Of a stretch of 64,000 nt of DNA, positions 10,472 through 43,914 are shown in pieces. The DNA comes from Cohnella candidum (GTDB lineage Bacteria; Bacillota; Bacilli; Paenibacillales; Paenibacillaceae), in contig NZ_CP033433.1 of the NCBI RefSeq assembly GCF_003713065.1, positions 1,647,001 through 1,711,000 of the forward strand. The letters are read 5' to 3'. A program made the position numbers and the translations under genes. The stretch's first letter is position 1. Each line of letters starts with the position of its first letter. Below the pieces are notes generated by a model. The model worked only from the letters and a program-made list of their open reading frames with translations. It was not told the DNA's origin and made no database searches.

Positions 10472-10474
10472 CGC

Positions 10475-15254: not shown

Positions 15255-15320
15255 GTCATCACCTTCTCCCCATGACCCTGCTTTCAGTAGATTCTAGTTT
15301 TGTCGCTCCTAAAAAAAGAA

Positions 15321-15390
15321 GCCGGGCTTAGATAGCTCTATCTAAGTCCGGCCGGCATGTCGTCGGAGCTTTCTTCCATGATTATACATT
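15321..15390 (-). repeat. attC-like remnant, type B (site 34)
   Basis: Only the first arm (GCCGGGCTTAGATAG paired with CTATCTAAGTCCGGC) and part of the second (TTCCATGATTATAC) survive; both outer boxes are lost. Confidence 0.55.
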
Positions 15391-15443
15391 GAATGCTTAA
15401 GATGCGACTATACATTCGCACGATTTAAATCATTAGTCTAATA

Positions 15444-15469
15444 GTTAACATAACCATTATTATGTAAAC
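15444..15469. other. dif-like palindrome 2
   Basis: Arms GTTAACATAA and TTATGTAAAC around a 6-bp centre (CCATTA). Same orientation of the conserved right arm as palindrome 1, so sites 1 and 2 would flank the 8.2-kb gene block as direct repeats. Confidence 0.5.
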
Positions 15470-15472
15470 ATT

Positions 15473-15802
15473 CTATTCAGCGGCTGCCCACAGAATGCCA
15501 ATTATGACTGTAAGCACGAGATGAACTAACGGTATGATGGGGAGTAATTTTCTCTTACGTTTGATAATGAAAAAGAGGATTAAGCAAGCAAGGTACGTTA
15601 ACAAATATGTGGTGCTCAAGAATAGGAACAAATAGACGATTACAGATAGATAAACTCTATCGTCTGATGACTCGCCTGCCATTTGCATAATATTCGCTAT
15701 AACAACAAATGGATAAATGAGCAAAGGAATGCCGCCAAGAACAAAACAAATTGTGTTCACTAATCTCTTATTGTGCAAGTCGACTCTCCTTCTCGTATTC
15801 AT
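15473..15802 (-). CDS. Small membrane protein, unknown
   Basis: 109 residues with three hydrophobic helices (about 13-34, 45-73, 85-107). No known motif. The stop codon lies 4 bp from dif-like palindrome 2. First of six genes between two type B remnants. Confidence 0.6.
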   Translation of the reverse strand: MNTRRRVDLHNKRLVNTICFVLGGIPLLIYPFVVIANIMQMAGESSDDRVYLSVIVYLFLFLSTTYLLTYLACLILFFIIKRKRKLLPIIPLVHLVLTVIIGILWAAAE

Positions 15803-15808
15803 GACGAT

Positions 15809-16366
15809 TTAGTTATCAATTGACTCCAAAACACTCTTTATAAAATCAGTTTTTGCCTCCGTGTAAGCTTCCCTATCTTCTTTGTAATCCTCCGCTAACT
15901 TCTTTTTAAGTTCGCCATATTGCCAGGTCCAATCTGGATTTTCTCGAAGTAAATTTCGAAACAGGAGTTGTTTTTCCCATCGCTCCTCATTCTCTAACAT
16001 AAGATGAAGATGACACTCTCTTTTATCATTTTTAACTTTGACAAAGAATCTTCTCCACTCCTGCCCATCCAATTCAGGCGGCACATAATTCCAGTTAACA
16101 GCTTTAAGGCTTGCAGCAATCTTTTCTATCTCATCATAAGAGCTAATCTTAGCCATCAAGTCAATAATGGGCTTTGCCGGGAGATTCGGTATCGATGTAC
16201 TGCCAATATGTTCAACTTCGCTGACTCCATAAGGAGAAAGGTGCTCTCTTAATCTATTAACTTCATAACGCCCTTTCTCTAACCAAACAGGATCAGGTGT
16301 CTTAATTTCAACCGATTCCGTAGCCCATACCGGCCAGTTGCTGTTAAGGTGTCGTATCATAATCAT
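15809..16366 (-). CDS. GrpB/UPF0157 nucleotidyltransferase-like protein
   Basis: 185 residues. The GrpB core VEHIGSTSIPNLPAKPIIDLM carries the nucleotidyltransferase-type GS(T)S and downstream Asp; RFFVKVKNDKRECHLHLML follows. Family function is unsettled; some members are fused to dephospho-CoA kinase. Overlaps the next upstream gene by 23 bp. Confidence 0.82.
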   Translation of the reverse strand: MIMIRHLNSNWPVWATESVEIKTPDPVWLEKGRYEVNRLREHLSPYGVSEVEHIGSTSIPNLPAKPIIDLMAKISSYDEIEKIAASLKAVNWNYVPPELDGQEWRRFFVKVKNDKRECHLHLMLENEERWEKQLLFRNLLRENPDWTWQYGELKKKLAEDYKEDREAYTEAKTDFIKSVLESIDN

Positions 16367-16625
16367 CCCAGTTCTTTTTTATTTGCTTAAAAGTGTTCTC
16401 CAAATGATTACCAAATTCAGAAATCGCTAAATAAAGGACACCGATAATCAGTGAAATAATGCTGAACAGCAACAGTCCGCCGCCTAAATTATTCAGGGCT
16501 TCTTTAAAGTGCGGCCAGCCCCAACCGTTCGTACCTGAAACCCAAATTGCTGCACAGATATAACGGACGCTATAGAGAAAAGCAGCAATGCTTATAAAAG
16601 CTATTCCCATTGACCTTCTATTCAT
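16344..16625 (-). CDS. Small membrane protein, unknown
   Basis: 93 residues, two strong membrane helices (about 8-30 and 48-70) and a charged cytoplasmic tail ending QIKKNWDDYDTTP. No family recognised. Confidence 0.55.
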   Translation of the reverse strand: MNRRSMGIAFISIAAFLYSVRYICAAIWVSGTNGWGWPHFKEALNNLGGGLLLFSIISLIIGVLYLAISEFGNHLENTFKQIKKNWDDYDTTP

Positions 16626-16698
16626 TCGATTGCTTCACCTCACGAGACGGATCTAGAGTTGCTATCACTGAGTCTTATCCAATCGACAAGCTCTTTCA

Positions 16699-17097
16699 TT
16701 AATTCCTTAGATTCCCGTGTATTCTGTATTCCTGATCATGGCTTTTGATGATTCCCTGTTCACGGAAATCAACATCGTAATTATTAAGATGACCATTTTT
16801 ATCTCTATAAACGATTGTCATAAGAAGTACATCGCCTGTTCCACCTCGAAACGTATTTAATTTTCTTGTATATGTAACCGTGCTCAATAATTGAATTAGT
16901 TCATCAAGATTTCTGCCCTGTTCCTTGGTTAACAAGTACACAGTTGAATTGCCTTGGGATTGATAAACAACATGAATCTTCTCTATATTAGTCGTATGTT
17001 TTAATACACTTCGAGTATTAACTGGATAAATGAAATAAAGGATTGACCCAAGAATAATCAAAACAAACATAGTTATGATGATCCGGGATGGTTTCAA
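16699..17097 (-). CDS. Membrane-anchored protein, unknown
   Basis: Start taken as the TTG at 17097 because GGGAG lies 6 nt before it; a longer frame from 17145 would overlap the methyltransferase. One N-terminal membrane anchor (IIITMFVLIILGSILYFIY), then an extracytoplasmic domain of about 100 residues with no recognised family. Confidence 0.55.
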   Translation of the reverse strand: MKPSRIIITMFVLIILGSILYFIYPVNTRSVLKHTTNIEKIHVVYQSQGNSTVYLLTKEQGRNLDELIQLLSTVTYTRKLNTFRGGTGDVLLMTIVYRDKNGHLNNYDVDFREQGIIKSHDQEYRIHGNLRN

Positions 17098-17125
17098 AAT
17101 TCTCCCTCTCTCTTGTAGGGGAAAT

Positions 17126-17806
17126 TTAATACTGCACAATTCCAATCACGAATCCATCGTAACCTTTGCTTCCCACCGTTTGAATTGCCGTAGCCGTAAT
17201 TCTCTGTTCGTTTGCGATAAGTTCAAAGAACTCTCTTACACCTCGTACACGCGGATCTTCGCTATTCACGTTAATGACTTCGCCTTCACGGATTACATTG
17301 TCTCCAATAATGACAGTGCCTGGATGGGAAAGATCAAGTGCCCATTTTAAATAATTTGGGTTATTCGGTTTGTCAGCATCGATAAAAATAAAGTCGAAAG
17401 GCTCGATGCCGTCATCTTTCATCTGCGCCAATTGTTCCAAAGCATCACCTACGCGAACTTCTACTTTCTCATGAACTAAAGCAAGTACAAGATTTGCTTC
17501 AGCGACCCGTGTATGATGAGGATCAAGTTCCAGAGTAATCAACTTTCCATCCGATGGAAGTGCTTGCGCCAACCAAATCGTACTATATCCTCCGAGCGTA
17601 CCAATTTCTAAAATGCGTTTTGACCCATGCATTCTCACAAGTAAATTTAACAGCTTACCCTGTGCGGGGGAGACGTCATAAGACGGTAATCCTTCTTCTC
17701 GATTATTGGCTAACACATCATCGAGTATCGGATCGTGCCGAATCAGTTGCTCCGATATGTACTGATCCACGTTCTCCCAAATGATCGATTGCTCCACGAA
17801 CATCAC
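17126..17806 (-). CDS. SAM-dependent O-methyltransferase
   Basis: 226 residues, caffeoyl-CoA/catechol O-methyltransferase class. SAM motif I is ILEIGTLGGYSTIWLA (about 61-76); the metal/acid motif is FDFIFIDADKPNN (about 134-146). Relatives methylate catechols and other small phenolics. 7 bp from the GNAT downstream. Confidence 0.85.
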   Translation of the reverse strand: MMFVEQSIIWENVDQYISEQLIRHDPILDDVLANNREEGLPSYDVSPAQGKLLNLLVRMHGSKRILEIGTLGGYSTIWLAQALPSDGKLITLELDPHHTRVAEANLVLALVHEKVEVRVGDALEQLAQMKDDGIEPFDFIFIDADKPNNPNYLKWALDLSHPGTVIIGDNVIREGEVINVNSEDPRVRGVREFFELIANEQRITATAIQTVGSKGYDGFVIGIVQY

Positions 17807-17813
17807 CTCTGTT

Positions 17814-18302
17814 TTATTGATTGCTTTTCAAGCACTTCTTCATTACAAACCAGCCATCCGTCTTTTCCGGGTACTCGTGTTCTTCGAGAATTTCAAATCC
17901 AATGTTCTGATAATACGAAATGTTGTTTGGAAGTGACTTCCTCGCTCCAATTCGTGTTTCAAAAACATTCCTTTTCATAGCTACTTGTTCTAAGTTTTGC
18001 ATTATAGCCGTTCCGATTCCTCTTCCACGTGCCGATCGTACAACTGAAACACGACCGATATACATATAATCTCCTTGAAAATAATACTGAGCGGATCCAA
18101 TGGGCTCTTCGTGCTGCCATACTATAATAGCTCCGCCCCTGTCGGTTATCTTCTTTCGAATGTCTTCGACTTCTTCTCGTAATGCTCCCGACTGAGGGAA
18201 TAACCGGTCCTGATATTCTTCAAATGCTTCCCTCATCACTCGATGAACGATCGAAAGCTGAGAATCATCAGCTTGTTTGATTTCATAGGTCAAACAAATC
18301 AC
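17814..18302 (-). CDS. GNAT acetyltransferase
   Basis: 162 residues; motif A VVRSARGRGIGTAIMQNLEQVA, acceptor-side motif ISYYQNIGFEILEEHEYPE. Directly follows the type B remnant at 18311-18390 (on the coding strand), so it is the leading gene of a multi-gene interval. Confidence 0.83.
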   Translation of the reverse strand: MICLTYEIKQADDSQLSIVHRVMREAFEEYQDRLFPQSGALREEVEDIRKKITDRGGAIIVWQHEEPIGSAQYYFQGDYMYIGRVSVVRSARGRGIGTAIMQNLEQVAMKRNVFETRIGARKSLPNNISYYQNIGFEILEEHEYPEKTDGWFVMKKCLKSNQ

Positions 18303-18310
18303 CTTCCAGT

Positions 18311-18390
18311 ATCACGACGCGACCCGGCTCTAGATAGCTCCTATCTTAGGCCGGGTCGTGTGTTGTCTGAGATATCTTCCATGATTATAC
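18311..18390 (-). repeat. attC-like remnant, type B (site 33)
   Basis: First arm ACCCGGC..TAGATAG/CTATCTTAGGCCGGGT and second arm TTGTCTGAGATATCTTCC remain. Outer R''/R' boxes are absent. Confidence 0.55.
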
Positions 18391-18399
18391 AAAGCAAGA

Positions 18400-18732
18400 T
18401 CATACTTGGCTATCCTCCACTGATCTTCCATGGGCAGTTCCAATACCACTATCCGCATTACTTAAGTTATTTATTTTGATATGTAAAATTCTCACGAAAA
18501 CAACGCCGACAACGATATATATCAAAATCACCAATAAAGAAAACAAGCTAGGTTTTTCAGTAGCTGTAATCCAAAGCGGCGGTATATCACTTTGCCAAGA
18601 ATTCGTCATGTGAGGGTCAAAATGAGTCTCACGATATGCAATTGCCCATATTTCATAAATCTTCGATATTACATAACCTACAACTAAACCAATCAATGCC
18701 CCAAGATAATAGTGAGGGTGAATCTTTCCCAT
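18400..18732 (-). CDS. Membrane protein, unknown
   Basis: 110 residues with two or three hydrophobic helices (GALIGLVVGYVISKIYEIW; LFSLLVILIYIVVGVVFV). Not recognised. Last gene before the type B remnant to its left. Confidence 0.5.
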   Translation of the reverse strand: MGKIHPHYYLGALIGLVVGYVISKIYEIWAIAYRETHFDPHMTNSWQSDIPPLWITATEKPSLFSLLVILIYIVVGVVFVRILHIKINNLSNADSGIGTAHGRSVEDSQV

Positions 18733-18769
18733 ATAGCACCTCTCTCTTCTCCAAGGTGATAGATTACTG

Positions 18770-19402
18770 TTACATGTACCAGCGTTTATTTACTGGGAAT
18801 CTTAACACCGTTTTCAACTTCTCCGGTTCGATCTTCCGGGGATCAGACAGATAGATCTCCCGGTGAATTTTACTTGAACGGATAAATCCCTGTTCTGTAC
18901 AAAACGCTTCCATACGTGCAAAGCTTGCAGGCTCATCATCAAAACTTCCAAGATGCATCATTTGACAACTCAATCCATCTTCCGCGTGTTCGAACCGGAC
19001 TTTTTCCAGATAGGGATTGGCTTTTTTCCTCTTGGTCTGCTCCAAAAATCGCTCAAACACTTTCTCAGTCACAAAATCCGGTTGGCGTATCATAACCGTG
19101 TACTTAAAATTGCTTTTGTCAGTCGCGGGCTTTGACCGGTCAACCAAGTCCCAAACGCCCTCAAGCGGAAACACCGTGTATTCATAATAACCCGTGGGTA
19201 CGTCGTTACTTCTGTAAGACATTCTGACTGCGTAACTCAAACTGTACAAAGCTTCAATCACCTTGCCAAATTCCTCGCCGTTAGGGTCCCCTGAACCACT
19301 GATCGTAAAAAATGACATCGATGGCACTTCCACTATTTCCGGTAGCGTTTTTGGTATATAAAGCTGCTTATAGTCTTTTTTATAATCTATCTTTTTGCTC
19401 AA
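18770..19402 (-). CDS. GyrI-like small-molecule-binding protein
   Basis: 210 residues of the GyrI-like/SHS2 class: PKTLPEIVEVPSMSFFTISGSGDPNGEEFGKVIEALYSL at the start and RKIEPEKLKTVLRFPV at the end. Relatives bind or hydrolyse small toxic molecules. Two other GyrI-like proteins occur in this array (24083, 35192). Overlaps the gene upstream by 23 bp. Confidence 0.78.
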   Translation of the reverse strand: MSKKIDYKKDYKQLYIPKTLPEIVEVPSMSFFTISGSGDPNGEEFGKVIEALYSLSYAVRMSYRSNDVPTGYYEYTVFPLEGVWDLVDRSKPATDKSNFKYTVMIRQPDFVTEKVFERFLEQTKRKKANPYLEKVRFEHAEDGLSCQMMHLGSFDDEPASFARMEAFCTEQGFIRSSKIHREIYLSDPRKIEPEKLKTVLRFPVNKRWYM

Positions 19403-19694
19403 ACCGATCGCTCCTAAGACTTATTCGATTCCTAATAAGATCAATTAGCAATCCTACGAACAACCAAAATACGACTCCCAGAAGATAAGTAAGAAAATTG
19501 AAATTGTAATTTACAATATCATCAATCCCTAACCAATTCTTTATGTAAAACTCGATATTGGTTACGAGATTGGCTATTTCCTGATTACTGCCTTCACCAA
19601 GTCCATTGAGATGACTTTTATCAATAATGATTGCTGTTGCTCCTAAACAAATTTGAACAACGGTTAAGATTACGGTGAGTTTAAACCTCTTCAT
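19380..19694 (-). CDS. Small membrane protein, unknown
   Basis: 104 residues; N-terminal helix (TVILTVVQICLGATAIII) and a second helix (FLTYLLGVVFWLFVGLLIDLI). Overlaps neighbours by a few bases on both sides, so it is translated as part of a polycistron. Confidence 0.55.
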   Translation of the reverse strand: MKRFKLTVILTVVQICLGATAIIIDKSHLNGLGEGSNQEIANLVTNIEFYIKNWLGIDDIVNYNFNFLTYLLGVVFWLFVGLLIDLIRNRISLRSDRFEQKDRL

Positions 19695-19885
19695 TGTTTA
19701 TCATTCAACTTCCTATGCTTTATTAAATTCGCTATCCCGTTCACGAGAAACAACAAAGCTACGATAAACAAACCGTAACCTGCTTTATCATTATTTGATT
19801 TCGAAAGAAACCCGGCAATCGCAAAACAAACCGCGGCTAGAATATTCAATATGGAAACTGCACGATAATTGGCCTTTTTCATCAT
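19691..19885 (-). CDS. Small membrane protein, unknown
   Basis: 64 residues, two membrane helices (SILNILAAVCFAIAGFLS; GYGLFIVALLFLVNGIANL). Stop overlaps the next start by 4 bp. Resembles small two-helix inner-membrane proteins of Bacillales; function unknown. Confidence 0.55.
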   Translation of the reverse strand: MMKKANYRAVSILNILAAVCFAIAGFLSKSNNDKAGYGLFIVALLFLVNGIANLIKHRKLNDKQ

Positions 19886-19894
19886 AAACTCTCC

Positions 19895-20104
19895 TTATTC
19901 ACTATCTTTAAATGAAAGGCCTTTCGCTTCTAATGCGTCACGCAGTTGTTTTATTGCATTTGGTCCAATTCCATGTAATTGTTTAAGTTCTGCTTCTGTG
20001 ATTCGCGTCAGTTGCTGTAAATCTGAAATTCCTGAGTTCCTAAGGGCGCGAATTGCCGGCTGCGCCAGTCTTGGAAAATCATTTGTTTCGTGATTGCTTA
20101 GCAT
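19895..20104 (-). CDS. Helix-hairpin-helix (RNAP alpha-CTD-like) protein
   Basis: Start at ATG 20104, preceded by GAGAGG; a longer frame begins at 20161. The core PRLAQPAIRALRNSGISDLQQLTRITEAELKQLHGIGPNAIKQLRDALEAKGL is the alpha-CTD-type HhH fold, here as a stand-alone 69-residue protein. Such proteins are common in Bacillales and may bind DNA nonspecifically; role unknown. Confidence 0.75.
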   Translation of the reverse strand: MLSNHETNDFPRLAQPAIRALRNSGISDLQQLTRITEAELKQLHGIGPNAIKQLRDALEAKGLSFKDSE

Positions 20105-20163
20105 ATGTTTCCTCTCTTCCTCGTTATGATCACTGATATTGAATTTGAAAATGTTGTTCACCT

Positions 20164-20619
20164 CTATACCAAGTCAAAGGAATATTGCACAGCCATAGAC
20201 GGTCTTCCGCTCAAACTGTCATAGAACGCTAAAGCATGCTCGTCCGAAGAATCCGCTTGTACAAATAGTTCTCTAATCCCCGTTCGCCTACAATATGCCT
20301 GAAGCTCTCGAACAAGCCCACTACCAATCCCACGGCGCCTGGTCTTCTCAGCTACGGCCAAATCGTACAAATACATCGCTGATCCCGGACGATCATACAT
20401 CCTAAGTTCGTACGCGGTGATCCCGCCTACAATCTCGTCTCCGTCGAAAGCAGCAATGCAAACAAATTCTGGACGCCCCAGTAACAATTCGATGTTTTGA
20501 GCGTTAACGTACTCAGGATCCACCGATTCGAACTCCCGATTAAACAGCCGCACCAATCCAGCAAACGCAGTCTCGTCGTTAGTAACAAGCTTACGATAGA
20601 CTATGCTATCCTTTTCCAT
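20164..20619 (-). CDS. AAC(3)-I-like aminoglycoside N-acetyltransferase
   Basis: Start at ATG 20619. The body LVRLFNREFESVDPE...IAAFDGDEIVGGITAYELRMYDRPGSAMYLYDLAVAEKTRRRGIGSGLVRELQ...FVQADSSDEHALAFY tracks AAC(3)-I enzymes (family pattern IYDLAV, RRxGI, YVQAD). Those acetylate gentamicin-type drugs, and aacC genes are classic integron cassettes. Activity here is inferred only. Confidence 0.75.
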   Translation of the reverse strand: MEKDSIVYRKLVTNDETAFAGLVRLFNREFESVDPEYVNAQNIELLLGRPEFVCIAAFDGDEIVGGITAYELRMYDRPGSAMYLYDLAVAEKTRRRGIGSGLVRELQAYCRRTGIRELFVQADSSDEHALAFYDSLSGRPSMAVQYSFDLV

Positions 20620-20656
20620 TGCTCTCACGTTCCTATCATGATATGAGTTGTTCGGC

Positions 20657-21136
20657 TCATTCCGTAAATAAAGCAAGATTCTCCAGAGAGGCATTCATAC
20701 CCAAAAGGTGATCGTCCTGTCGGATTCCTTCGGGAACATTTTCACAGACAATCGTAACTTCGGTGCCTTCAGAAACTTCTGCAAAGATCCACGTCATTAT
20801 CATCGTCCCGGCGTATGCAGGGTCAGCGGACTCGAATTCTACTAACTGTACAATTCGCTCGTTTGGAACAAATTCAAGGTATCTCCCCTTAACAATATCC
20901 GTATTTTCCGAGGACTTACCGGGCATAGCATGTTTTGTGTCGGTATACGTTAAGGACATTCGATAGGCGCCACCATTCGTAGCATCGAACTCATAAATTT
21001 GTCCCTTCATTCCCTTAGGTGGAAGCCATGAAACCAAGGCTTCTGGATCAATGAATGACTTATAAATAGTTTGAGGTGAAGCTTTGATAACTCTAGAAAC
21101 AGAGTCAATTCGTTTGTTATTTGACGAAATTGACAT
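20657..21136 (-). CDS. SRPBCC (AHSA1-like) protein
   Basis: 159 residues: SRVIKASPQTIYKSFIDPEALVSWLPPKGMKGQIYEFD...GGAYRMSLTY is the Aha1/START-like ligand-binding fold. Usually binds hydrophobic ligands; function unknown. Leading gene of a co-directional group whose members overlap or nearly overlap. Confidence 0.8.
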   Translation of the reverse strand: MSISSNNKRIDSVSRVIKASPQTIYKSFIDPEALVSWLPPKGMKGQIYEFDATNGGAYRMSLTYTDTKHAMPGKSSENTDIVKGRYLEFVPNERIVQLVEFESADPAYAGTMIMTWIFAEVSEGTEVTIVCENVPEGIRQDDHLLGMNASLENLALFTE

Positions 21137-21245
21137 GAATCAGTCCTCCAGGTTACACAGATAATATTCTTATTTCCGCTTGACCTTGACACTAATGTGA
21201 GGGATTAAAATGAGATTATCTTGATCAGAAGGGAAAGAGGAAGCT

Positions 21246-21467
21246 ATGGATATTACACCACAGGAAGAAAACATGATTTTGGCTTTTCGGGAAAATGCTC
21301 TACCTCCTTTATTCGTACTCATTCGAATTAGAAATGATATCTTAAATGACACTGTAAATATTGAAGAAAGTCGAAGAAATGAAATCGTAAAGACACTTGA
21401 AAGTTATATCAGCTCACTTTGGGAAGACTATCATGAAGAGAAAGATTTGCACACAAAAAATGAATGA
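21246..21467 (+). CDS. Hypothetical protein on the opposite strand
   Basis: 73-residue acidic, helical protein (MDITPQEENMILAFRENALPPL...SLWEDYHEEKDLHTKNE). GGAAG sits 3-8 nt before the ATG. This is the only plus-strand gene in the array, inverted relative to its neighbours; a TTGACA hexamer at 21186-21191 may belong to its own promoter. No family recognised. Confidence 0.5.
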   Translation: MDITPQEENMILAFRENALPPLFVLIRIRNDILNDTVNIEESRRNEIVKTLESYISSLWEDYHEEKDLHTKNE

Positions 21468-21469
21468 TC

Positions 21470-21612
21470 ATAAAGTTCCCGTATTCACGGCGCGAGCCGG
21501 CCTTAGATAGCTCCTATCTTAGGCCGGCTCGTGTGTCGTCTGAACCATCTTCCATGATTATACATCTGTCGACCATGGGGCGTAAGCCCCCCGCTTTGTA
21601 ATGCAGTGGTAT
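21470..21612 (-). repeat. attC-like site, type B, degenerate (site 32)
   Basis: Complete internal arms (GAGCCGGCCTTAGATAG/CTATCTTAGGCCGGCTC; GTCGTCTG; GGGGCGTAAGCCCC) between GTATTCACGG and AATGCAGT. The R'' side reads ATAAA instead of ATAAC and the R' side GGTATCT instead of GTTATCT, so it is probably inactive. Confidence 0.65.
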
Positions 21613-36897: not shown

Positions 36898-36924
36898 GTT
36901 TCACCCTAACTTTGCATTAATATC

Positions 36925-37088: not shown

Positions 37089-37123
37089 GACGTTCGACCT
37101 TCTTGAACTGCTAACTAAAGATC

Positions 37124-37609: not shown

Positions 37610-37642
37610 TTGGTTACCATCCTTTATTATTAGTCGAATGTC

Positions 37643-37802
37643 AGCTAACGTCTCTTGTATTCACGAACCCGAGAACCTTAAGCCCCAACGGGGCGGCCGC
37701 GATGCGGTTAGGTTCGCAGGGTTGTCCGCCTGATCCACTTCCTGAAATGCATCGGCGGACCGAGCAGCCATCAGGCTGCGATGCGTGAATACGATGTTAT
37801 CA
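37643..37802 (-). repeat. attC-like site, type A (site 9)
   Basis: AGCTAAC...GTTATCA, 160 bp; loop GCCCCAACGGGGC; shortened second-arm loop (CTTCCTGAAATGCATCGGCGGAC). Confidence 0.82.
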
Positions 37803-37822
37803 GAAGTAAGTGCCTACCTTGA

Positions 37823-38334
37823 TTAAGCAAACGAAAAATCTACTTTTCTGATTAATAATTCTATGCCTTTTAATTCATACCGAGCTTTTATGTTTATATT
37901 GTCCCAATTCTCAGGCATTGTAGAACGAGACAAAAGCCTATGTTCTGCTTTAGTTATAGTAGCTGTCCATAAATATTTATGTAGTAATTCTCTAACAAAA
38001 TCTTCGGAGAGCATTTTTTGCCTTGCTCTAGTCTCGCAAATATCTTGAATATACCTCTTTTTGGAATTAGATGATCATATTCTATATCTGAATATGATCC
38101 CAAGCTTATTTCCTGTAATGCATTCTCAGTAATAAAATCGGTTGTATAATGTTTGTCTTTGGGATGTCTAGAAACAGTTTTAGTTTTGAGGTAAATATGT
38201 AGATTTGCTAGGAATTTATTTTTCCCTTCATTAATTCCTTTCATATATAATTCGTCTTCATATGGTAGGGATATTAAAAAATCATAGTATTTCTTCGCCA
38301 GTATTTCTAAAACTTGATCTCTGTGAATGAACAA
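37823..38334 (-). pseudogene. Hypothetical gene with frameshift in an A-run
   Basis: Frame 38334-37954 runs to ...FARLEQGKK. A six-A run (about 38010-38016) then needs one more A to continue as MLSEDFVRELLHKYLWTATITKAEHRLLSRSTMPENWD...FSFA in the second frame (to 37823). Joined it is about 170 residues; YDHLIPKRGIFKIFARLEQGKK might be part of a nuclease-like core, but no family is certain. A slip-prone run means a sequencing error or translational/transcriptional slippage is possible. Confidence 0.6.
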
Positions 38335-38377
38335 AACAATTCCTCAATTCTCTTCTGATTTATATAGCACTTATTTC

Positions 38378-38541
38378 TGATAACGTCTCTCGTATTCACG
38401 AACCCGAGAACCTTAAGCCCCAACGGGGCGGCCGCGACGCGGTTAGGTTCGCAGGGTTGTCCGCCTGATTCAGCTCCCTTGAAAATTCTTCGGGCGGACC
38501 GAGCAGCCGCCAGGCTGCGATGCGTGAATACGATGTTATAT
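38378..38541 (-). repeat. attC-like site, type A (site 8)
   Basis: TGATAAC...GTTATAT; loop GCCCCAACGGGGC; third arm GCAGCCGCCAGGCTGC. Confidence 0.82.
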
Positions 38542-38584
38542 GCAGTCGTGGACTTCTTGAAATACTTACAAATCAAGGTCTTCT

Positions 38585-38818
38585 TTAATTTCTTTTTTGG
38601 TTTATTCTTAGTGCACTTATTGATCCCAAAACCCATATAAACGCTAACAAATATAAAATTCTTATCTGTAACTCCTCATGAAGTGCCATCACACCAAATA
38701 TTAATAGAAAACCAACAAAGAACTGTATGTATTCTAGATTGTTTCTCAACCAAATCGGCAGAAAAAAACATAGGATGCATCCTAGAAAGATAAATGGTTC
38801 TATTGCTAAGCTACCCAT
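38585..38818 (-). CDS. Small membrane protein, unknown
   Basis: 77 residues, two to three helices (FIFLGCILCFFLPIW; YIQFFVGFLLIFGVMALH; ILYLLAFIWVLGSISAL). A single short cassette with a matched end (TTATATGCAGTCGTGG). No family recognised. Confidence 0.55.
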   Translation of the reverse strand: MGSLAIEPFIFLGCILCFFLPIWLRNNLEYIQFFVGFLLIFGVMALHEELQIRILYLLAFIWVLGSISALRINQKRN

Positions 38819-38874
38819 TTAAGCTCTTCTCCTTATTTAGATCTTTAAATTACGAACTTAATCCCCACGATTGC

Positions 38875-39038
38875 ATATAACGTCTTACGTATTCACGAAC
38901 CCGAGAACCTTAAGCCCCAACGGGGCGGCCGCGATGCGGTTAGGTTCGCAGGGTTGTCCGCCTGAATTCGCCTCTTCGAAATGCCTCGGGCGGACCGAGC
39001 AGCCAACAGGGCTGCGATGCGTGAATACGGTGTTAGCT
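38875..39038 (-). repeat. attC-like site, type A (site 7)
   Basis: ATATAAC...GTTAGCT; loop GCCCCAACGGGGC; third arm has an extra G (AGCCAACAGGGCTGC). Confidence 0.82.
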
Positions 39039-39062
39039 GATGTTGCCTCTTCATAGAAATAC

Positions 39063-39470
39063 TCACAATTTTTCTTTGTTTGTATGTAGTCCTATAATCT
39101 CTATTACTTCCACTTCACCGACTCTCCTGGAGCCTTCCATGAAATAACCTTTAGTCCCTACTTTAATTCTATTTCTATGTACTTTCTCCCTCATTTCTTG
39201 AAAAAGGATCCACATTCGAGCTGTTCCACTTGCCCTTACCGGTTTGTCATCTACTAAAATAATATTTCCTAATTCATCTTCAAATTCAGGATGGATCGCA
39301 TATATTGACTTGTCTTCCACGTAATATTCTTCATATGCAAAATCACATCTGTATCCTTGATAAGGTATTTTCTTTCTTCCGCCTTCTTGTGGTAAATAGA
39401 AATGGTACTTTACATTAAAATCTTGCGGATGATTTCTGATTTTTTCATATGGGACCCACAAACTTACCAC
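39063..39470 (-). CDS. Hypothetical protein
   Basis: Frame from GTG 39470; GGAG favours TTG 39461 (product LWVPYEKIRN...). 132-135 residues with YHFYLPQEGGRKKIPYQGYRCDFAYEE and VGTKGYFMEGSRRVGEVEVIEII, the latter like the beta-barrel domain of EF-Tu-like small proteins. Similar small barrel proteins occur in Gram-negative cassettes. Weak family call. Confidence 0.6.
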   Translation of the reverse strand: MVSLWVPYEKIRNHPQDFNVKYHFYLPQEGGRKKIPYQGYRCDFAYEEYYVEDKSIYAIHPEFEDELGNIILVDDKPVRASGTARMWILFQEMREKVHRNRIKVGTKGYFMEGSRRVGEVEVIEIIGLHTNKEKL

Positions 39471-39491
39471 TCCATCTTTTTAGGCAATGTC

Positions 39492-39655
39492 AGCTAACGT
39501 CTCTCGTATTCACGAACCCGAGAACCTTAAGCCCAACGGGCGGCCGCGACGACGCGGTTAGGTTCGCAGGGTTGTCCGCCTGTTCCTGCTCCCTGGGAAT
39601 TCCTCGGGCGGACCGAGCAGCCACCAGGCTGCGATGCGTGAATACGGTGTTATGC
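39492..39655 (-). repeat. attC-like site, type A (site 6)
   Basis: AGCTAAC...GTTATGC; loop GCCCAACGGGC; an extra GAC in GCGACGACGCGG. Confidence 0.82.
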
Positions 39656-39681
39656 GATGCCAGTGCCACCCTGAATAATCT

Positions 39682-40176
39682 TCAAACTGTGTTGTAGTTT
39701 TTATGATCCCATAAGGATTCTATAAAGTACTTGATCGGTTCCATGTAATCTATTGGTTTATGTATCATTCTATTCAGCCATTTCAAGCGTTCAATATTAT
39801 CGTAAAAATCATCTTCAACAAACCATGTAACTTCTTTCATTGTTCCTAGGACACTTCTGTTGTTTGTCTTCGAAATAACTACTTCTGCGCAGTACTCTAA
39901 ATATCTATTGATCAATGTTTCGTTAACTCCCTCTCGGAGTAAGTATTCCCTAAAAGTTAGCAAGAATTTATCTTTCAATCGCTCTAATTGCCCTGTTCTT
40001 ATTCCATCAATGATAATAGCTAATCTAGTTAAATCGTTCACAAAGACAATGTGTTTTCGTTTGTTCAAGATATATATATTTACATGCCAGCTTAAAAACG
40101 GAGCTACATTGGCGTCTTCAACTGGAGTTGTTTTCATGTCTTTCAAAAGGTCTTTAGTAAGTCTTAAAGTAAGCAT
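39682..40176 (-). CDS. Hypothetical protein (DUF6933-like)
   Basis: 164 residues from ATG 40176 (GAAAGG upstream). MLTLRLTKDLLKDM...LSWHVNIYILNKRKHIVFVNDLTRLAIII resembles the DUF6933 family (small proteins with a HxN(I/L)... FVND motif). Function unknown. Family name tentative. Confidence 0.6.
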   Translation of the reverse strand: MLTLRLTKDLLKDMKTTPVEDANVAPFLSWHVNIYILNKRKHIVFVNDLTRLAIIIDGIRTGQLERLKDKFLLTFREYLLREGVNETLINRYLEYCAEVVISKTNNRSVLGTMKEVTWFVEDDFYDNIERLKWLNRMIHKPIDYMEPIKYFIESLWDHKNYNTV

Positions 40177-40204
40177 CCTGTTGTTCCTTTCTCGCACTGG
40201 TTTC

Positions 40205-40367
40205 GCATAACGTCTCTCGTATTCACGAACCCGAGAACCTTAAGCCCCAGCGGGGCGGCCGCAGCGCGGTTAGGTTCGTAGGGTTGTCCGCCTGGATCTG
40301 CATCCTCGAAATGCCTCTGGCGGACCGAGCAGCCGCTAGGCTGTGATGCGTGAATACGGTGTTATCG
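40205..40367 (-). repeat. attC-like site, type A (site 5)
   Basis: GCATAAC...GTTATCG; loop GCCCCAGCGGGGC; third arm GCAGCCGCTAGGCTGT. Confidence 0.82.
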
Positions 40368-40676
40368 GATGGATCCGCCCTCTTCGAAAATACTGCCAAG
40401 GTTCTTCTTATTGCTCTTGATCTTCATCTGCTCTTGATCTTCATCTGCTCTTGATCTTCATCTGCTCTTGATATTAATCCGCTCTTGTTCTTCTGCACTT
40501 AGTCTTCGACTGATCACTTCTTCGAAATGCCTACTTTCCTTATTCCATGTCCGTCAAGAATTTCCTTTCTCTTCCTTAATGCTTTATGTCGTTATATAGC
40601 AAAAAAGGTCACGGCGACCGCGACCCAAGTAATCAATCTCTAATGTCTCTTATCGTCTTTAATCAGCGGATCTTTC
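40368..40676 (-). other. ORF-less terminator cassette, variant B2
   Basis: Like B1, with terminator at 40601-40625 and four 17-bp-type repeats (ATGAAGATCAAGAGCAG). No gene. Confidence 0.78.
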
Positions 40677-40841
40677 CGATAACGTCTCTCGTATTCACGA
40701 ACCCGAGAACCTTAAGGCTCCGGAGGAGCCGACCGCGACGCGGTTAGGTTCGCAGGGTTGTCCGCCTGGATTAGCTCCCTCGAAATGCCTCGGGCGGACC
40801 GAGCAGCCATCAGGCTGCGATGCATGAATACGGTGTTATCG
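40677..40841 (-). repeat. attC-like site, type A (site 4)
   Basis: Same sequence as site 15 (33947), including GGCTCCGGAGGAGCC and TGCATGAATAC; CGATAAC at its left. Confidence 0.83.
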
Positions 40842-41098
40842 GATCGATCCGCCATCTTCGAAATACTTTCAAGGTTCTCTAATTGTTCTTGATCTTCATC
40901 TGTTCTTGATCTTCATCTGTTCTTGATCTTCAAAATCTCTTCTTCGAAATGCCTACTTTCCATATTCCATGTCCGTCAAGAATTTCCTTTCTCTTCCTTC
41001 ACGATGAGGGTCGTTAAATAGAAAAAAGGTCACGGCAACCGTGACCTAAGTAATCAAATCTCTAATTTATCTATTGGTTTTTAATCAGCGGATCTTTC
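40842..41098 (-). other. ORF-less terminator cassette, copy A2
   Basis: Apparently identical to A1. With site 4 it forms a 422-bp unit, directly repeated as 41099-41520. Terminator at 41022-41046. Confidence 0.83.
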
Positions 41099-41263
41099 CG
41101 ATAACGTCTCTCGTATTCACGAACCCGAGAACCTTAAGGCTCCGGAGGAGCCGACCGCGACGCGGTTAGGTTCGCAGGGTTGTCCGCCTGGATTAGCTCC
41201 CTCGAAATGCCTCGGGCGGACCGAGCAGCCATCAGGCTGCGATGCATGAATACGGTGTTATCG
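41099..41263 (-). repeat. attC-like site, type A (site 3)
   Basis: Copy of sites 4 and 15; CGATAAC...GTTATCG. Confidence 0.83.
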
Positions 41264-41520
41264 GATCGATCCGCCATCTTCGAAATACTTTCAAGGTTCT
41301 CTAATTGTTCTTGATCTTCATCTGTTCTTGATCTTCATCTGTTCTTGATCTTCAAAATCTCTTCTTCGAAATGCCTACTTTCCATATTCCATGTCCGTCA
41401 AGAATTTCCTTTCTCTTCCTTCACGATGAGGGTCGTTAAATAGAAAAAAGGTCACGGCAACCGTGACCTAAGTAATCAAATCTCTAATTTATCTATTGGT
41501 TTTTAATCAGCGGATCTTTC
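41264..41520 (-). other. ORF-less terminator cassette, copy A3
   Basis: Tandem duplicate of A2. Terminator at 41444-41468. No gene. Confidence 0.83.
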
Positions 41521-41685
41521 CGATAACGTCTCTGGTATTCACGAACCCGAGAACCTTAAGGTCACGAAGTGACCGGCCGCGATGCGGTTAGGTTCGCAGG
41601 GTTGTCCGCCTGAGTTACTTCCATTTAAATGCCTCGGGCGGACCAAGGAGCCGTCAGGCTCCGCAGCGTGAATGTGATGTTACAC
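41521..41685 (-). repeat. attC-like site, type A (site 2)
   Basis: CGATAAC...GTTACAC; loop GGTCACGAAGTGACC; third arm GGAGCCGTCAGGCTCC. Differs from the left-hand sites of A2/A3. Confidence 0.82.
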
Positions 41686-41689
41686 GATG

Positions 41690-42052
41690 TCATTGCCCTC
41701 GTTGATTACGCTGCAAATATCTCTTCAATCTTGTAAATAAACCATCATTTCTTGTTTTGGGCCTACTTGAATATTGATCGACAATCACTATAAGTTCCAG
41801 ATATCTATCTTGCCATCCATTTGAAATTGATAATTCTTGAAATGTCCCAGTTGGAGCAAACAAAAATACAACTCTATCTATGGCAGATCTATCCTTATTA
41901 CTTAAAGTTAGGAGAAGATAATCCAATTCACTGTTCAATTCATTAATGTTGTTGTAGCCGCTCCATGTCATATCAGTGTTAATATCAATTTTTTTTTTAA
42001 TTTCTTTAAGAATTAAAGTAAATTCTTCGAATTCACTCTGTATGGTTCTCAC
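41690..42052 (-). CDS. Hypothetical protein
   Basis: 120 residues (MRTIQSEFEEFTLILKEIKKKIDINTDMTWSGYNNINELNSELDYLLLTL...). Helical N terminus, basic C terminus RLKRYLQRNQRGQ. Not recognised. The stop lies 5 bp from site 2. Confidence 0.6.
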   Translation of the reverse strand: MRTIQSEFEEFTLILKEIKKKIDINTDMTWSGYNNINELNSELDYLLLTLSNKDRSAIDRVVFLFAPTGTFQELSISNGWQDRYLELIVIVDQYSSRPKTRNDGLFTRLKRYLQRNQRGQ

Positions 42053-42080
42053 CTACTCTTTTCAAAAACGCAATGATTTC

Positions 42081-42247
42081 GTGTAACGTTCCCGCATTCA
42101 CGAACCCGAGAGGCTTAAGGCGACGAAGTCGCCGGGTGGCTTCGCCACTTAGCCTCGCAGGGTTGTCCGCCTGTATCCTCTTCTTCGAAAATGCATCTGG
42201 CGGACCGAGCGGCCGTAAGGCTGCGACGCGTGAATGCAGTGTTATCT
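42081..42247 (-). repeat. attC-like site, type A' (site 1, nearest the integrase)
   Basis: GTGTAAC...GTTATCT; first arm of the GAGGCTTAAGG/CTTAGCCTC kind with loop GGCGACGAAGTCGCC. Marks the end of cassette 1. Confidence 0.82.
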
Positions 42248-42281
42248 GAAGGAACCAGCTTCATCGAGAAACTTAACATTC

Positions 42282-42665
42282 TTATTTACCGTTAGGTGTA
42301 TTAAATAATCCTTCAAGTTCTTTTGGTACTACCATGATGTTCTGTATTTTATATGTCTTTGTGTCTTGATCTTTAATAATTTCGAGTAATAAACTCTTTC
42401 CATTAATTCTTATGTAACTATATGTTCTGAATTCAGCTCCATTTGATTTTATTTCTTTAAGATTAGCAAAATACTCACTATTTATTGTCTCTTTCCTCGT
42501 TTCTGTAAAATATGACTTTAATGTTTCATAGTCTTGATTATTTATCGCTAAGGATGCAAGAAGTGATAGGTTCTCGGGTGTATCTGGTCTTACTTTTTTA
42601 TCATTTGTACAACTCATTATGAAAAGAACAGATATTAATGAAATTAGTTTTATCCATTTTTTCAT
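42282..42665 (-). CDS. Lipoprotein, unknown (first cassette)
   Basis: 127 residues; signal peptide with lipobox LFIMSC (cleavage before Cys19). A small extracytoplasmic domain follows (ENLSLLASLAINNQDYETLKSYFTETRKETI...). Cassette closest to the integrase, therefore the most recently inserted if insertion is at attI. AGGAG box before the ATG. Confidence 0.65.
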   Translation of the reverse strand: MKKWIKLISLISVLFIMSCTNDKKVRPDTPENLSLLASLAINNQDYETLKSYFTETRKETINSEYFANLKEIKSNGAEFRTYSYIRINGKSLLLEIIKDQDTKTYKIQNIMVVPKELEGLFNTPNGK

Positions 42666-42688
42666 ATGATTCTCCTTTCGGTTCTTTC

Positions 42689-42719
42689 AGATAACTCCCA
42701 TTCCACGAACTCGCATAAC
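42689..42719 (-). other. attI-like primary recombination site
   Basis: On the minus strand GTTATGCGAGTT (box at 42713-42719) is followed, 24 bp on, by GGGAG then TTATCTGAAAG at 42689-42695, where the first cassette begins. It lacks the cloverleaf arms but resembles the right end of an attC (GTGGAATGGGAG versus GTGAATACGAGAGACG). Located between integrase and array, as an attI should be. Crossover point inferred. Confidence 0.6.
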
Positions 42720-42786
42720 ACTCTTCCACCGTCTGATATACGAATTCGCTATAAATCCACATTTTTCCTCTTTCGCGAACATCTCC

Positions 42787-43914
42787 CTACTCCTCATCCC
42801 CGGACTCCATCATCCGATCTAAAGGACTCTTGATTCTCCGGATGTCTTTGATGCTGACGTGGGTGTAGATCTCCGTCGTCTTGGAGCTGGCGTGACCGAG
42901 CAACTCTTGGATGTAGCGCAGGTCTGTCCCCTCCTCAAGCAAATGCGTAGCAAAGGAGTGACGCAGAGTATGAACGGTCGCGGGCTTCAGAATGCCGGCG
43001 GCTCTCCTGGCGCGGTAGAATACGAGTTGGATCGTGCGCACGTTGATGGGCTTACCCAGATCGTCACCGCTCGGGAAGAGATAGTCTTCAACTCGGACCA
43101 TTTTCAAGTACTTCTCCAACAATCGATAAGCTTGAGCGGACAATACAGTATAACGATCCTTCCGTCCCTTGCCCTGGCGGATATGGATCGTCTTCCTCGC
43201 CGGATCGATATCCTGACGTTTCAGCTTCACGACTTCACCGATTCGCAGACCTACCGAATAGACGAGAGTCAGAATGGTGCGGTGTTTCACATTCTGGATG
43301 GCACCGAGCAGTCGCGTAACCTCTTGCATGGACAGCACGCTGGGCAGCTTTTTCTCGCGTTTCGGCATGATCCATGCCTTGGAGAAGCCGATCCGGTTCT
43401 CCACCTCGCACAGCCAGAATTTTAAAGCGCTGAGCGCCTGGCTGACATAGATGTGCGACCGGTCTTCCGCCATCAGCTTTTTCACATACTGGTGGACATG
43501 TTCCGGCATTGTTTCCGAAAAGGGGGCGGCCAGTTGCTCCAAAAAACGCCGAGCATGTCCGGTATAAGCTTTCTGCGTGCTGGCACTGTATCCTTTTCTC
43601 TTCATCCGATCGGCCAAGCGATCCAACGAGCGCCAATCGGAACCGCTTCTCAGCTTGGCAAACTCTGGATACGATTCCAACAGCGAAGGCGACATCACCT
43701 CAACGGGATCCTCCCGAAAATAGTGACACAACCATCTCACAGACTCCACGTTATCCGGCACGCGCCACCTTTTCATTTCGGCATCCCATTTTCGCCCGGG
43801 GATCTTCCGTAACCGATCCACCCATTCGGCCACGTATGGCATCGTCACCGCCAACCAACCGTCCGGCAATCTCTCCAAAATGATACCATTCTGCTCATCC
43901 CTCATTCCCTGCAT
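42787..43914 (-). CDS. Tyrosine recombinase, candidate cassette integrase
   Basis: 375 residues. N-terminal HARP-like segment (about 20-66: VDRLRKIPGRKWDAEMKRWRVP), then a SAM-like core-binding domain (about 95-180) and a catalytic domain with R224, K249, H315-x-x-R318, H341 and nucleophile Y350, all present. The C terminus ...IKSPLDRM resembles IntI, but the roughly 20-residue IntI-specific insert (DPRSG..RRHH region) between LFPSG and the HTLRHSF box is absent. Encoded on the same strand as the cassettes, 68 bp before the attI-like site. GC-rich, like the host genes. Confidence 0.8.
   Translation of the reverse strand: MQGMRDEQNGIILERLPDGWLAVTMPYVAEWVDRLRKIPGRKWDAEMKRWRVPDNVESVRWLCHYFREDPVEVMSPSLLESYPEFAKLRSGSDWRSLDRLADRMKRKGYSASTQKAYTGHARRFLEQLAAPFSETMPEHVHQYVKKLMAEDRSHIYVSQALSALKFWLCEVENRIGFSKAWIMPKREKKLPSVLSMQEVTRLLGAIQNVKHRTILTLVYSVGLRIGEVVKLKRQDIDPARKTIHIRQGKGRKDRYTVLSAQAYRLLEKYLKMVRVEDYLFPSGDDLGKPINVRTIQLVFYRARRAAGILKPATVHTLRHSFATHLLEEGTDLRYIQELLGHASSKTTEIYTHVSIKDIRRIKSPLDRMMESGDEE

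What the first reader, a model, noticed from the sequence alone, without database searches (positions are those of the whole stretch)
15319..43914. Integron-like cassette array with its own integrase and attI in a Firmicutes genome
Seen: 34 related sites delimit mostly single-gene, co-directional units with the function spectrum known from integron cassettes (GNAT, VOC, Nudix, DinB, unknowns, ORF-less). Each site has AAC/GTT boxes, an attI-like site lies at the end, and a tyrosine recombinase is adjacent. Known: integrons are a Proteobacteria/Spirochaete/Planctomycete-type system with IntI, not established in Firmicutes chromosomes. Inference: this is a cassette-capture system, either a divergent integron or convergent. 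This is the best candidate for a new system in the window.
Basis: partly seen in the sequence, partly recalled or inferred. Interest (0 to 1): 0.97.

Follow-up and report, generated by a model that had tools for sequence, protein, structure and literature searches.

The report
Integron-like gene-cassette system with new integrase
A Gram-positive bacterium carries a long row of swappable single-gene cassettes that behaves like an integron, but its recombinase lacks the part thought essential in integrons and seems to carry a different extra domain, and similar systems turn up in other bacterial groups.

Summary
On the minus strand 31 related, hairpin-forming sites plus decayed remnants divide 42.7-15.3 kb into short, mostly single-gene units behind a tyrosine recombinase gene (42787-43914) and an attI-like site. 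The units are cassettes: each unit's first ~14 nt pair with its own far end, not with the site it abuts. Three 422-nt units are identical from crossover to crossover; one cassette is 98.6% identical in two species whose integrases are 47% identical. The integrase is not IntI: the ~40-residue IntI insert is absent and it has a HARP-like N-terminus. The layout recurs in 19 of 20 fetched Paenibacillaceae loci. A cassette signature follows 38 of 54 integrase loci in named genomes, mainly Bacteroidota and Bacillota; matched control 83 hits downstream, 1 upstream. Best reading: an integron-like cassette-capture platform driven by an integrase unlike IntI, probably on a folded bottom strand. Activity is inferred, not shown. 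Ten searches of an open-licence library, seen as listings (some capped), showed no paper on it.

The parts
42787..43914 (-). Integrase gene (P0001, 375 aa): HARP-like N-terminal domain (about residues 10-75), SAM-like core-binding domain, tyrosine recombinase catalytic domain
   Evidence: R224, K249, H315, R318, H341, Y350 invariant in the 60 rows (that these are the catalytic residues is recalled)
42695..42786 (-). attI-like site: imperfect palindrome (by eye and fold); crossover G at 42695
   Evidence: sequence and fold; position
42084..42244 (-). attC-like site 1
41524..41682 (-). attC-like site 2
41102..41260 (-). attC-like site 3
40680..40838 (-). attC-like site 4
   Evidence: identical copy of site 3
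40208..40364 (-). attC-like site 5
39495..39652 (-). attC-like site 6
38878..39035 (-). attC-like site 7
38381..38538 (-). attC-like site 8
37646..37799 (-). attC-like site 9
36928..37085 (-). attC-like site 10
36184..36340 (-). attC-like site 11
35731..35886 (-). attC-like site 12
35008..35165 (-). attC-like site 13
34372..34527 (-). attC-like site 14
33950..34108 (-). attC-like site 15
   Evidence: identical copy of site 3
33306..33463 (-). attC-like site 16
32792..32949 (-). attC-like site 17
32469..32609 (-). attC-like site 18 (shorter type)
31888..32046 (-). attC-like site 19
29785..29943 (-). attC-like site 20
29083..29241 (-). attC-like site 21
28424..28586 (-). attC-like site 22
27719..27874 (-). 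attC-like site 23
26970..27133 (-). attC-like site 24
26437..26574 (-). attC-like site 25 (shorter type)
   Evidence: not in training set
25858..26016 (-). attC-like site 26
25325..25450 (-). attC-like site 27 (left arm partly lost)
   Evidence: not in training set
24588..24746 (-). attC-like site 28
23892..24045 (-). attC-like site 29 (right R box degenerate)
   Evidence: not in training set
22378..22457 (-). attC-like site 30 (short, degenerate)
   Evidence: E=1.7e-4 (not in training set)
21471..21611 (-). attC-like site 31 (shorter type)
   Evidence: not in training set
18298..18417 (-). decayed site remnant
   Evidence: family D18
15338..15389 (-). decayed site remnant (distal end of the array)
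   Evidence: family D20
42088..42695 (-). cassette 1 (ORF 42282-42665, unknown, lipoprotein-like start by eye)
41528..42087 (-). cassette 2 (ORF 41690-42052, unknown)
41106..41527 (-). cassette 3, ORF-less, 422 nt, identical copy A
40684..41105 (-). cassette 4, ORF-less, 422 nt, identical copy B
40212..40683 (-). cassette 5, ORF-less
39499..40211 (-). cassette 6, DUF6933
38882..39498 (-). cassette 7, unknown
38385..38881 (-). cassette 8, 77-aa unknown
37650..38384 (-). cassette 9, weak SmaI-like match below cut-off
36932..37649 (-). cassette 10, unknown
36188..36931 (-). cassette 11, DUF3841
35735..36187 (-). cassette 12, only a 70-aa ORF on the opposite strand
35012..35734 (-). cassette 13, GyrI-like / Cass2 (Pfam: integron-associated effector-binding protein)
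34376..35011 (-). cassette 14, unknown
33954..34375 (-). cassette 15, ORF-less, 422 nt, identical copy C
33310..33953 (-). cassette 16, unknown
32796..33309 (-). cassette 17, 104-aa unknown
32473..32795 (-). cassette 18, ORF-less
31892..32472 (-). cassette 19, unknown
29789..31891 (-). cassette 20, GmrSD_N / NsnA-like, candidate defence
29087..29788 (-). cassette 21, NUDIX
28428..29086 (-). cassette 22, glyoxalase/VOC
27723..28427 (-). cassette 23, GNAT
26974..27722 (-). cassette 24, MST/DinB
26441..26973 (-). cassette 25, unknown
25862..26440 (-). cassette 26, LMW phosphatase-like
25329..25861 (-). cassette 27, glyoxalase/VOC
24592..25328 (-). cassette 28, GNAT
24083..24550 (-). cassette 29 gene, Cass2/GyrI-like
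15473..23878 (-). distal, decayed part of the array: GNAT, AHSA1, GyrI-like, O-methyltransferase, GrpB and unknown genes on the cassette strand

Best explanation
It is an integron-like gene-cassette platform. The adjacent tyrosine recombinase (P0001) recombines the attC-like site of circular cassettes with an attI-like site whose crossover lies 92 nt behind its stop codon, so new cassettes enter at that end, and it excises or shuffles cassettes by site x site recombination. Shown from sequence: a cassette runs from one GTT crossover to the next, its two ends form one coherent ~190-nt palindrome when joined, and cassettes have moved within and between genomes as whole units. Inferred: P0001 is the enzyme, and the site is recognised as a folded single strand, most likely the bottom strand. 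That reaction would have to manage without the I2 helix of classical integrases. I propose that the HARP-like N-terminal domain, with the longer outer arm (about 14 nt) and a one-sided 4-5-nt bulge before GTT, does the job of I2. My confidence is about 0.85 for cassette capture and shuffling by this integrase, 0.6 for the folded bottom strand and 0.35 for that role of the HARP-like domain.
For: (1) Boundaries: for 26 of 28 cassettes (2 dropped, no left arm found) the first 8 nt after GTTA match the own end 6.65/8, other ends 4.0/8, the abutting end 4.26/8; 0 of 20,000 permutations. (2) Mobility within the genome: three 422-nt units 100% identical, flanks diverging at the crossover, two in tandem and one about 6.7 kb away. 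(3) Between genomes: one cassette 98.6% identical over 704 nt in G086 and G055, ends 3 and 17 nt from the crossovers, integrases 46.8% identical. G120 and G086 share 2,247 nt at 95.7% that end 127 nt behind the integrase match, and beyond that only one shared cassette at >=75% over >=220 nt. (4) Association: 19 of 20 fetched relatives (20 of the 43 other matches, from 19 genomes) have R1 sites downstream; 42 of 43 integrase-positive genomes carry sites against 62 of 105 others, p=3e-7, not corrected for relatedness. (5) Beyond the family: 38 of 54 loci positive (4 of the 54 are named Paenibacillus); 83 hits downstream against 1 upstream over 238,928 bases each in 46 loci; the first cassette starts 82-204 nt behind the integrase match in 26 of the 38. 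In 42 chained sites the abutting match is only 5.2/12. (6) In 80 sites of loci not named Paenibacillus, AC precedes GTT in 60 (background 212 of 3,325) and A follows AAC in 70. (7) Covariation: 46 cells against 8.7 in shuffles. The bottom strand of the joined site folds more stably in 25 of 26 window sites and 67 of 68 sites of 16 other loci. (8) The best solved relative by sequence profile and by fold is the integron integrase IntI4, 2a3v.
Against: No recombination was observed. Archaeal XerA-type structures score almost as well as IntI4 (sequence 6.8e-58 against 2.1e-58; fold 6.2e-14 against 2.0e-14, TM-score 0.46 for the best). 62 of 105 genomes without a strong integrase hit still carry sites. 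16 of 54 loci with at least 1 kb downstream gave no signature, and in 12 of the 38 positive loci the first detected cassette starts 281-6083 nt away. Many positive loci rest on a single hit; the two archaeal MAGs have one hit each, one of them 6083 nt away. Site L059 lacks the AC|GTT motif. Strand-stability counts come from homologous sites and are not independent. The HARP match of P0001 is below Pfam's cut-off (16.7 against 25 bits); only 17 of 60 homologues match at E<=0.01. Own-end pairing in the second array is weaker (8, 8, 11, 9 of 12). At class level the integrase is uncommon: 18 of 299 genomes, 6 of them outside the family (E<=1e-80).
Confidence: 0.85

Rival explanations
1. The platform is real but works on double-stranded sites, like Xer/dif; the hairpin capacity is a by-product of inverted core sites.
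For: The integrase lacks the I2 insert that gave IntI its single-strand activity (PMC7790495 abstract and passages). A simple arm alignment shows no extra-helical base in the L helix of 26 of 26 window sites.
Against: About 160 nt of interior structure with compensatory changes, a one-sided bulge, and more stable bottom strands (25 of 26; 67 of 68) are not needed for a double-stranded core site.
Confidence: 0.25
2. The array is recombined by another enzyme of the genome (XerS-like or another of the five tyrosine recombinases), or is a fossil; P0001 is only a neighbour.
For: Five Phage_integrase matches in the genome. 62 of 105 genomes have sites without a strong hit to this integrase. The distal part of the array is decayed.
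Against: Cassettes begin just behind this integrase type in loci of several phyla (26 of 38 within 82-204 nt). The residues I take as catalytic are invariant in 60 rows. Three identical 422-nt units argue for recent activity.
Confidence: 0.08
3. It is a classical integron whose IntI secondarily lost the insert and gained an N-terminal domain.
For: IntI4 is the best structural and sequence relative; TIGR02249 scores 202 bits; the cassette logic is the same.
Against: HARP-type integrases form one side of a branch (SH-aLRT 94) apart from IntI (100) and Xer (97), and their KxR-HxLR gap (58-62 residues in 38 of 44 rows) resembles that of XerC and XerD (62, 66), not of IntI (100). The root is not fixed, the program warns of long branches, and rows were dropped for that tree.
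Confidence: 0.12
4. Static structured repeats (REP-, BIME- or MITE-like) scattered between genes.
For: Sites are similar, palindromic and numerous.
Against: Own-end complementarity, exact unit copies, one whole unit shared between distant hosts. A search with one site finds matches in two arrays of the genome only, apart from two 19-29-nt matches at E=0.02.
Confidence: 0.02

Closest known systems
Classical integrons (IntI, attI, attC; class 1 and sedentary chromosomal integrons such as that of Vibrio cholerae)
   Same: Cassette from G|TT to G|TT, AAC and GTT as the strict bases, a circular cassette completing one palindrome, attI beside the integrase, mostly single-gene co-directional cassettes, ORF-less cassettes, an integrase-less array (CALIN-like), GNAT/VOC/NUDIX/Cass2 genes
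   Different: No IntI-specific insert; HARP-like N-terminal domain; integrase on the same strand as the cassettes; outer pairing about 14 nt instead of the 9-11 given in PMC2727003; site with several apical hairpins; no extra-helical base seen in the L helix of the window sites; attI looks palindromic
Archaeal integrons (PMC9668308, passages only)
   Same: Cassette arrays, attC sites, attI just behind the integrase
   Different: Those were defined by the IntI-specific domain, which is absent here
Xer recombinases (XerA, XerC/D, XerS)
   Same: Length of the catalytic core; NF040815 (XerA) is the best-scoring NCBIfam model (210.4 bits, under its cut-off of 220)
   Different: No cassette arrays and no HARP-like domain (recalled); different site
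Reverse-oriented integrons of spirochaetes (orientation mentioned in a passage of PMC9668308; Treponema recalled)
   Same: Integrase pointing the same way as the cassettes (recalled)
   Different: Their integrase is IntI (recalled)

Membership tests
Integron (IntI type) | Tyrosine recombinase with the IntI-specific insert (patch III / I2 helix) | tested here: not met
   TIGR02249 202.3 bits, below cut-off 265, profile positions 182-236 unmatched; KxR-HxLR gap 60 against 100; alignment
Integron (IntI type) | attC sites: AAC/GTT ends, folded palindrome, R''-L'' and L'-R' arms | tested here: met
Integron (IntI type) | Extra-helical bases in the L arm of attC | tested here: inconclusive
   0 of 26 window sites by a simple alignment of the first ~18 nt of the arms; but Fusibacter sites (L078, sequences) seem by eye to have one extra base in the left arm
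Integron (IntI type) | attI next to the integrase, at which cassettes enter | tested here: met
   Position and cassette boundary; homology between G120 and G086 ends 127 nt behind the integrase match. Insertion itself not observed
Integron (IntI type) | Mobile cassettes, one gene each, mostly in one direction | tested here: met
   22 of 28 same strand, 5 ORF-less, 1 opposite; mobility
Integron (IntI type) | Integrase-catalysed recombination at G|TT of the bottom strand | not testable with these tools
   Needs a bench assay; indirect strand data
Integron (IntI type) | Match to the IntegronFinder attC covariance model | not testable with these tools
   That model is not held; an Rfam gathering search of the window gave 0 matches
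Xer recombinase | Passes a Xer/XerA equivalog cut-off | tested here: not met
   XerA 210.4 < 220, XerC 179.7 < 335.15, XerD 176.9 < 329.6
HARP (PF07443) domain protein | Passes Pfam's gathering score | tested here: not met
   P0001 16.7 < 25. Scores of the homologues against the cut-off were not printed: 17 of 60 match at E<=0.01, best 6.6e-6. HARP-like, not proven HARP

The most novel reading that the evidence does not exclude
There is a second, previously unrecognised class of integrons spread over many bacterial phyla and perhaps some archaea. Its integrases lack the I2 helix held to be the key innovation of IntI and carry instead an N-terminal HARP-like fork- or hairpin-binding domain, so recombination of folded single-stranded cassette sites has two different protein solutions.
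Probability: 0.5. Interest if true: 0.97.

Novelty: new variant of a known kind. Interest (0 to 1): 0.92.

Why it matters
Integrons are described as extremely rare in Firmicutes (PMC9024848, passages), and one study states that its finder identifies integrases by the IntI-specific domain (PMC9668308, passages), so I infer that this set would be missed or seen as lone CALINs. In Paenibacillaceae the sites occur in 104 of 148 genomes searched, which makes it a common gene-capture route there. It bears on an open question: how a tyrosine recombinase became able to use folded single strands. The present account rests on acquisition of the I2 helix (PMC7790495, abstract and passages); an I2-less integrase with a cassette array makes that directly testable. 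The cassettes also hold candidate defence genes.

Tried and rejected
Rejected: static repeats, a canonical IntI integron, a plain palindrome without cassettes (low abutting-end match). Rfam gave no match. In that scan the reverse strand of the downstream DNA also scores (72 hits against 92) because the signature is near-symmetric, so only the upstream stretch served as control. The scan kept the best 80 loci of 561; 54 of these 80 have at least 1 kb downstream. One search used 16 loci picked for having cassettes. A first tree contained one wrongly stranded row (own_L001) and long branches; HARP-type needed 2 changes there. The second tree (quick method, SH-aLRT only, with long-branch warnings) dropped own_L001, L084, P0074, B_L142, B_L163, B_L164 and L126 and added the correctly read own Xer and the window XerS; it is provisional. 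Before both trees, rows without an ORF of over 200 aa at the place read were lost (L068 and L091 among the named loci, and several minus-strand Bacillota hits). The loose pattern gave implausible gaps (125-314) in 6 of 44 HARP-type rows and 213 in 1 of 14 IntI rows; for one of them (P0102) the alignment shows no insert, the others were not resolved. Its N-terminal motif was found in 39 of 44 HARP-type rows but also once in an IntI row (B_L142), so it is loose. The N-terminal domain folded alone gave a poor model (pLDDT 64) and was not searched. Only three segment pairs passed the filter, and two of them belong to one cassette split by an insert of about 1.2 kb, so the end statistic there (4 of 6 ends within 40 nt of a crossover, random 0.077) is small; other shared segments (for example L040-L048, 93.8% over 845 nt) did not pass it and their ends were not tested. 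No strain-level comparison of the window's own species was possible.

Full report
What is there. The window lies at 1,647,001-1,711,000 of a 5.29-Mb, one-contig genome. Two genomes of the same genus group have contigs whose lengths equal those given for proteins named Cohnella sp. CFH 77786 and Cohnella caldifontis (P0028 and P0060; contig lengths), so the host is probably a Cohnella-like member of Paenibacillaceae (inference). On the minus strand a tyrosine recombinase gene (42787-43914) is followed 92 nt later by a crossover point (G at 42695) and then by 28 units delimited by related sites down to 24592; sites continue to 21471 and decayed remnants reach 15338. Model R1 finds 31 window sites; 24 of them trained it.

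The units are cassettes. In a classical integron the palindromic attC is complete only in the circular cassette, so in the linear array the first bases of a cassette pair with its own far end, one unit away, and not with the site they touch. That is the case here: over the first 8 nt after GTTA, own end 6.65 of 8, abutting end 4.26, any other end 4.0, and no permutation of 20,000 reaches the observed mean (26 of 28 cassettes, 2 dropped for want of a left arm; 22 distinct ones give 6.7 against 4.1). Pairing extends to about 14 nt with an A opposite C at position 7 in 22 of 26, which on the bottom strand is a G-T pair. The interior of the site (about 160 nt) varies with compensation: 15 of 36 pairs and 46 cells changed on both sides, against 5.7 and 8.7 in shuffles; slid controls give 2 to 10 cells.

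They move. Three ORF-less 422-nt units are identical from crossover to crossover while their flanks differ. Between species, G120 and G086 share 2,247 nt at 95.7% around the integrase (integrases 96.1% identical), ending 127 nt behind the integrase match, where the attI should lie. Beyond that, at the cut-offs (220 nt, 75%), they share one cassette only (99.7-99.8%), which in G086 is interrupted by about 1.2 kb. G086 and G055 share one cassette at 98.6% over 704 nt with ends 3 and 17 nt from the crossovers, although their integrases are 46.8% identical.

The integrase. P0001 has the Phage_integrase and SAM_4 domains and a weak N-terminal HARP match (16.7 bits, cut-off 25; 17 of 60 homologues match HARP at E<=0.01, best 6.6e-6). 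The six positions I take as catalytic are invariant in 60 rows. NCBIfam's integron integrase model scores 202 bits, below its cut-off of 265, in two stretches that leave out profile positions 182-236. The distance from KxR to HxLR is 58-62 residues in 38 of 44 HARP-type rows and 100 in 13 of 14 IntI rows; the other rows gave implausible values from the loose pattern and, save one, were not resolved. An alignment of nine proteins shows two inserts of IntI missing in the five HARP-type ones. Only 1 of 299 Bacillota genomes has a hit over the IntI cut-off. In a provisional tree HARP-type, IntI and Xer each form one side of a branch (94, 100, 97). By sequence profile (E=2e-58) and by fold (Foldseek E=2e-14, TM-score 0.46; model pLDDT 87) the nearest solved structure is the V. 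cholerae integron integrase, 2a3v, with archaeal XerA-type structures close behind (6.8e-58 and 6e-14).

How far it reaches. In Paenibacillaceae, P0001 homologues at E<=1e-70 occur in 43 of 148 genomes and R1 sites at E<=1e-5 in 104 of 148, 17 of 19 genera; sites are in 42 of 43 integrase-positive and 62 of 105 other genomes (p=3e-7, relatedness not corrected). I fetched 20 of the 43 other integrase matches (19 genomes); 19 have sites downstream of the integrase, and the exception (L055) has under 500 nt there. In the class, 18 of 299 genomes have the integrase at E<=1e-80, 6 of them outside the family. From a named-genome scan that kept the best 80 loci, the integrase's 3' end lies within 5 kb of the contig end in 22 of 48 long contigs and its 5' end in 2, as expected if a repeat array follows. 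A boundary scan that assumes GTT, AAC, complementary ends and a short inner stem finds 91 cassettes in 38 of 54 loci with at least 1 kb downstream; with matched lengths in 46 loci, 83 hits downstream against 1 upstream; 40 of the 91 close on the start of the next detected cassette; the first begins 82-204 nt behind the integrase in 26 of the 38. Loci with two or more hits include isolates (Flavobacterium luteum, F. terrisoli, F. frigidarium, Arundinibacter roseus, Pelobium manganitolerans, Fusibacter sp. 3D3, Paenibacillus solani and P. assamensis); Alkaliphilus pronyensis and MAGs of Nitrospirota, Aminicenantes, Altarchaeum and Micrarchaeota have one hit each, a Nitrospinae MAG two. MAG binning may be wrong, and single hits are weak evidence. 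In 80 sites of loci not named Paenibacillus, AC precedes GTT in 60 (background 212 of 3,325) and A follows AAC in 70, the same pattern as the window's TAACA...GAGACGTTA.

Mechanism. Shown: unit boundaries, unit mobility, site structure, and the integrase and attI arrangement. Inferred: the integrase performs the reaction, and the bottom strand is the folded partner (more stable in 25 of 26 and in 67 of 68 joined sites; homologous sites, not independent). Classical attC recognition uses extra-helical bases (PMC2727003, abstract and passages) read by the I2 helix (PMC7790495, abstract and passages). Here the integrase has no I2 and a simple test shows no such base in the L helix of 26 window sites, though Fusibacter sites seem by eye to have one. 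Another recognition rule seems needed. The bulge before GTT, the long outer arm and the HARP-like domain are candidates (inference; that HARP domains bind forked DNA is recalled).

Literature. Ten searches showed no paper on this system; I saw titles and starts of abstracts, and four of the listings were capped (20 of 92, 15 of 34, 15 of 90, 8 of 26). The library holds open-licence PubMed Central papers only, no preprints, so prior description elsewhere cannot be excluded. Passages read: PMC9024848, PMC8618304, PMC8138268, PMC9668308, PMC7790495, PMC2727003. PMC8138268 says that the catalytic-domain insert is 'not fully conserved' in its integron-like subgroup but essential for integron function; that subgroup may already hold HARP-type proteins. 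PMC8618304 lists Firmicutes and Bacteroidota among phyla with integrons.

Verdict. It works like an integron; it is not a member of the IntI family by the tested defining feature. I file it as a new variant of a known kind, with high interest.

Noticed in passing
L014 (G000:C1:1195000-1212000), 7049-11080: A second, integrase-less array of the same sites whose units encode a ThsB-like TIR protein, a DUF1883-TIR protein and a protein with a weak HEPN match (below cut-off): candidate defence cassettes.
   Followed up: partly
window 42695-42786 and the region behind the integrase in 16 other loci: Several attI-like sites look by eye like imperfect palindromes themselves (for example Flavobacterium luteum, L109), unlike classical attI as I recall it.
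   Followed up: partly
window 43955-43990: A terminator-like hairpin lies between the upstream gene and the integrase start codon and could isolate or attenuate integrase expression; the scan finds such sites no more often than in shuffles (2 against 2.1).
   Followed up: partly
window 7300-15254: Small genes on the cassette strand (GNAT, DinB, others) continue beyond the array without recognised sites; the DinB gene at 13740-14267 is 58% identical to the cassette gene at 27154-27717, perhaps very old cassettes.
   Followed up: no
window 34137-34234, 35934-36031, 40412-40509, 40867-40964, 41289-41386: Several ORF-less cassettes carry tandem 17-nt repeats (family D13).
   Followed up: no
L140 (Chryseobacterium sp. 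SNU WT5 plasmid, integrase at 13929-14972): A HARP-type integrase with a cassette signature (2 hits) sits on a plasmid, so the system can be on a mobile replicon.
   Followed up: partly
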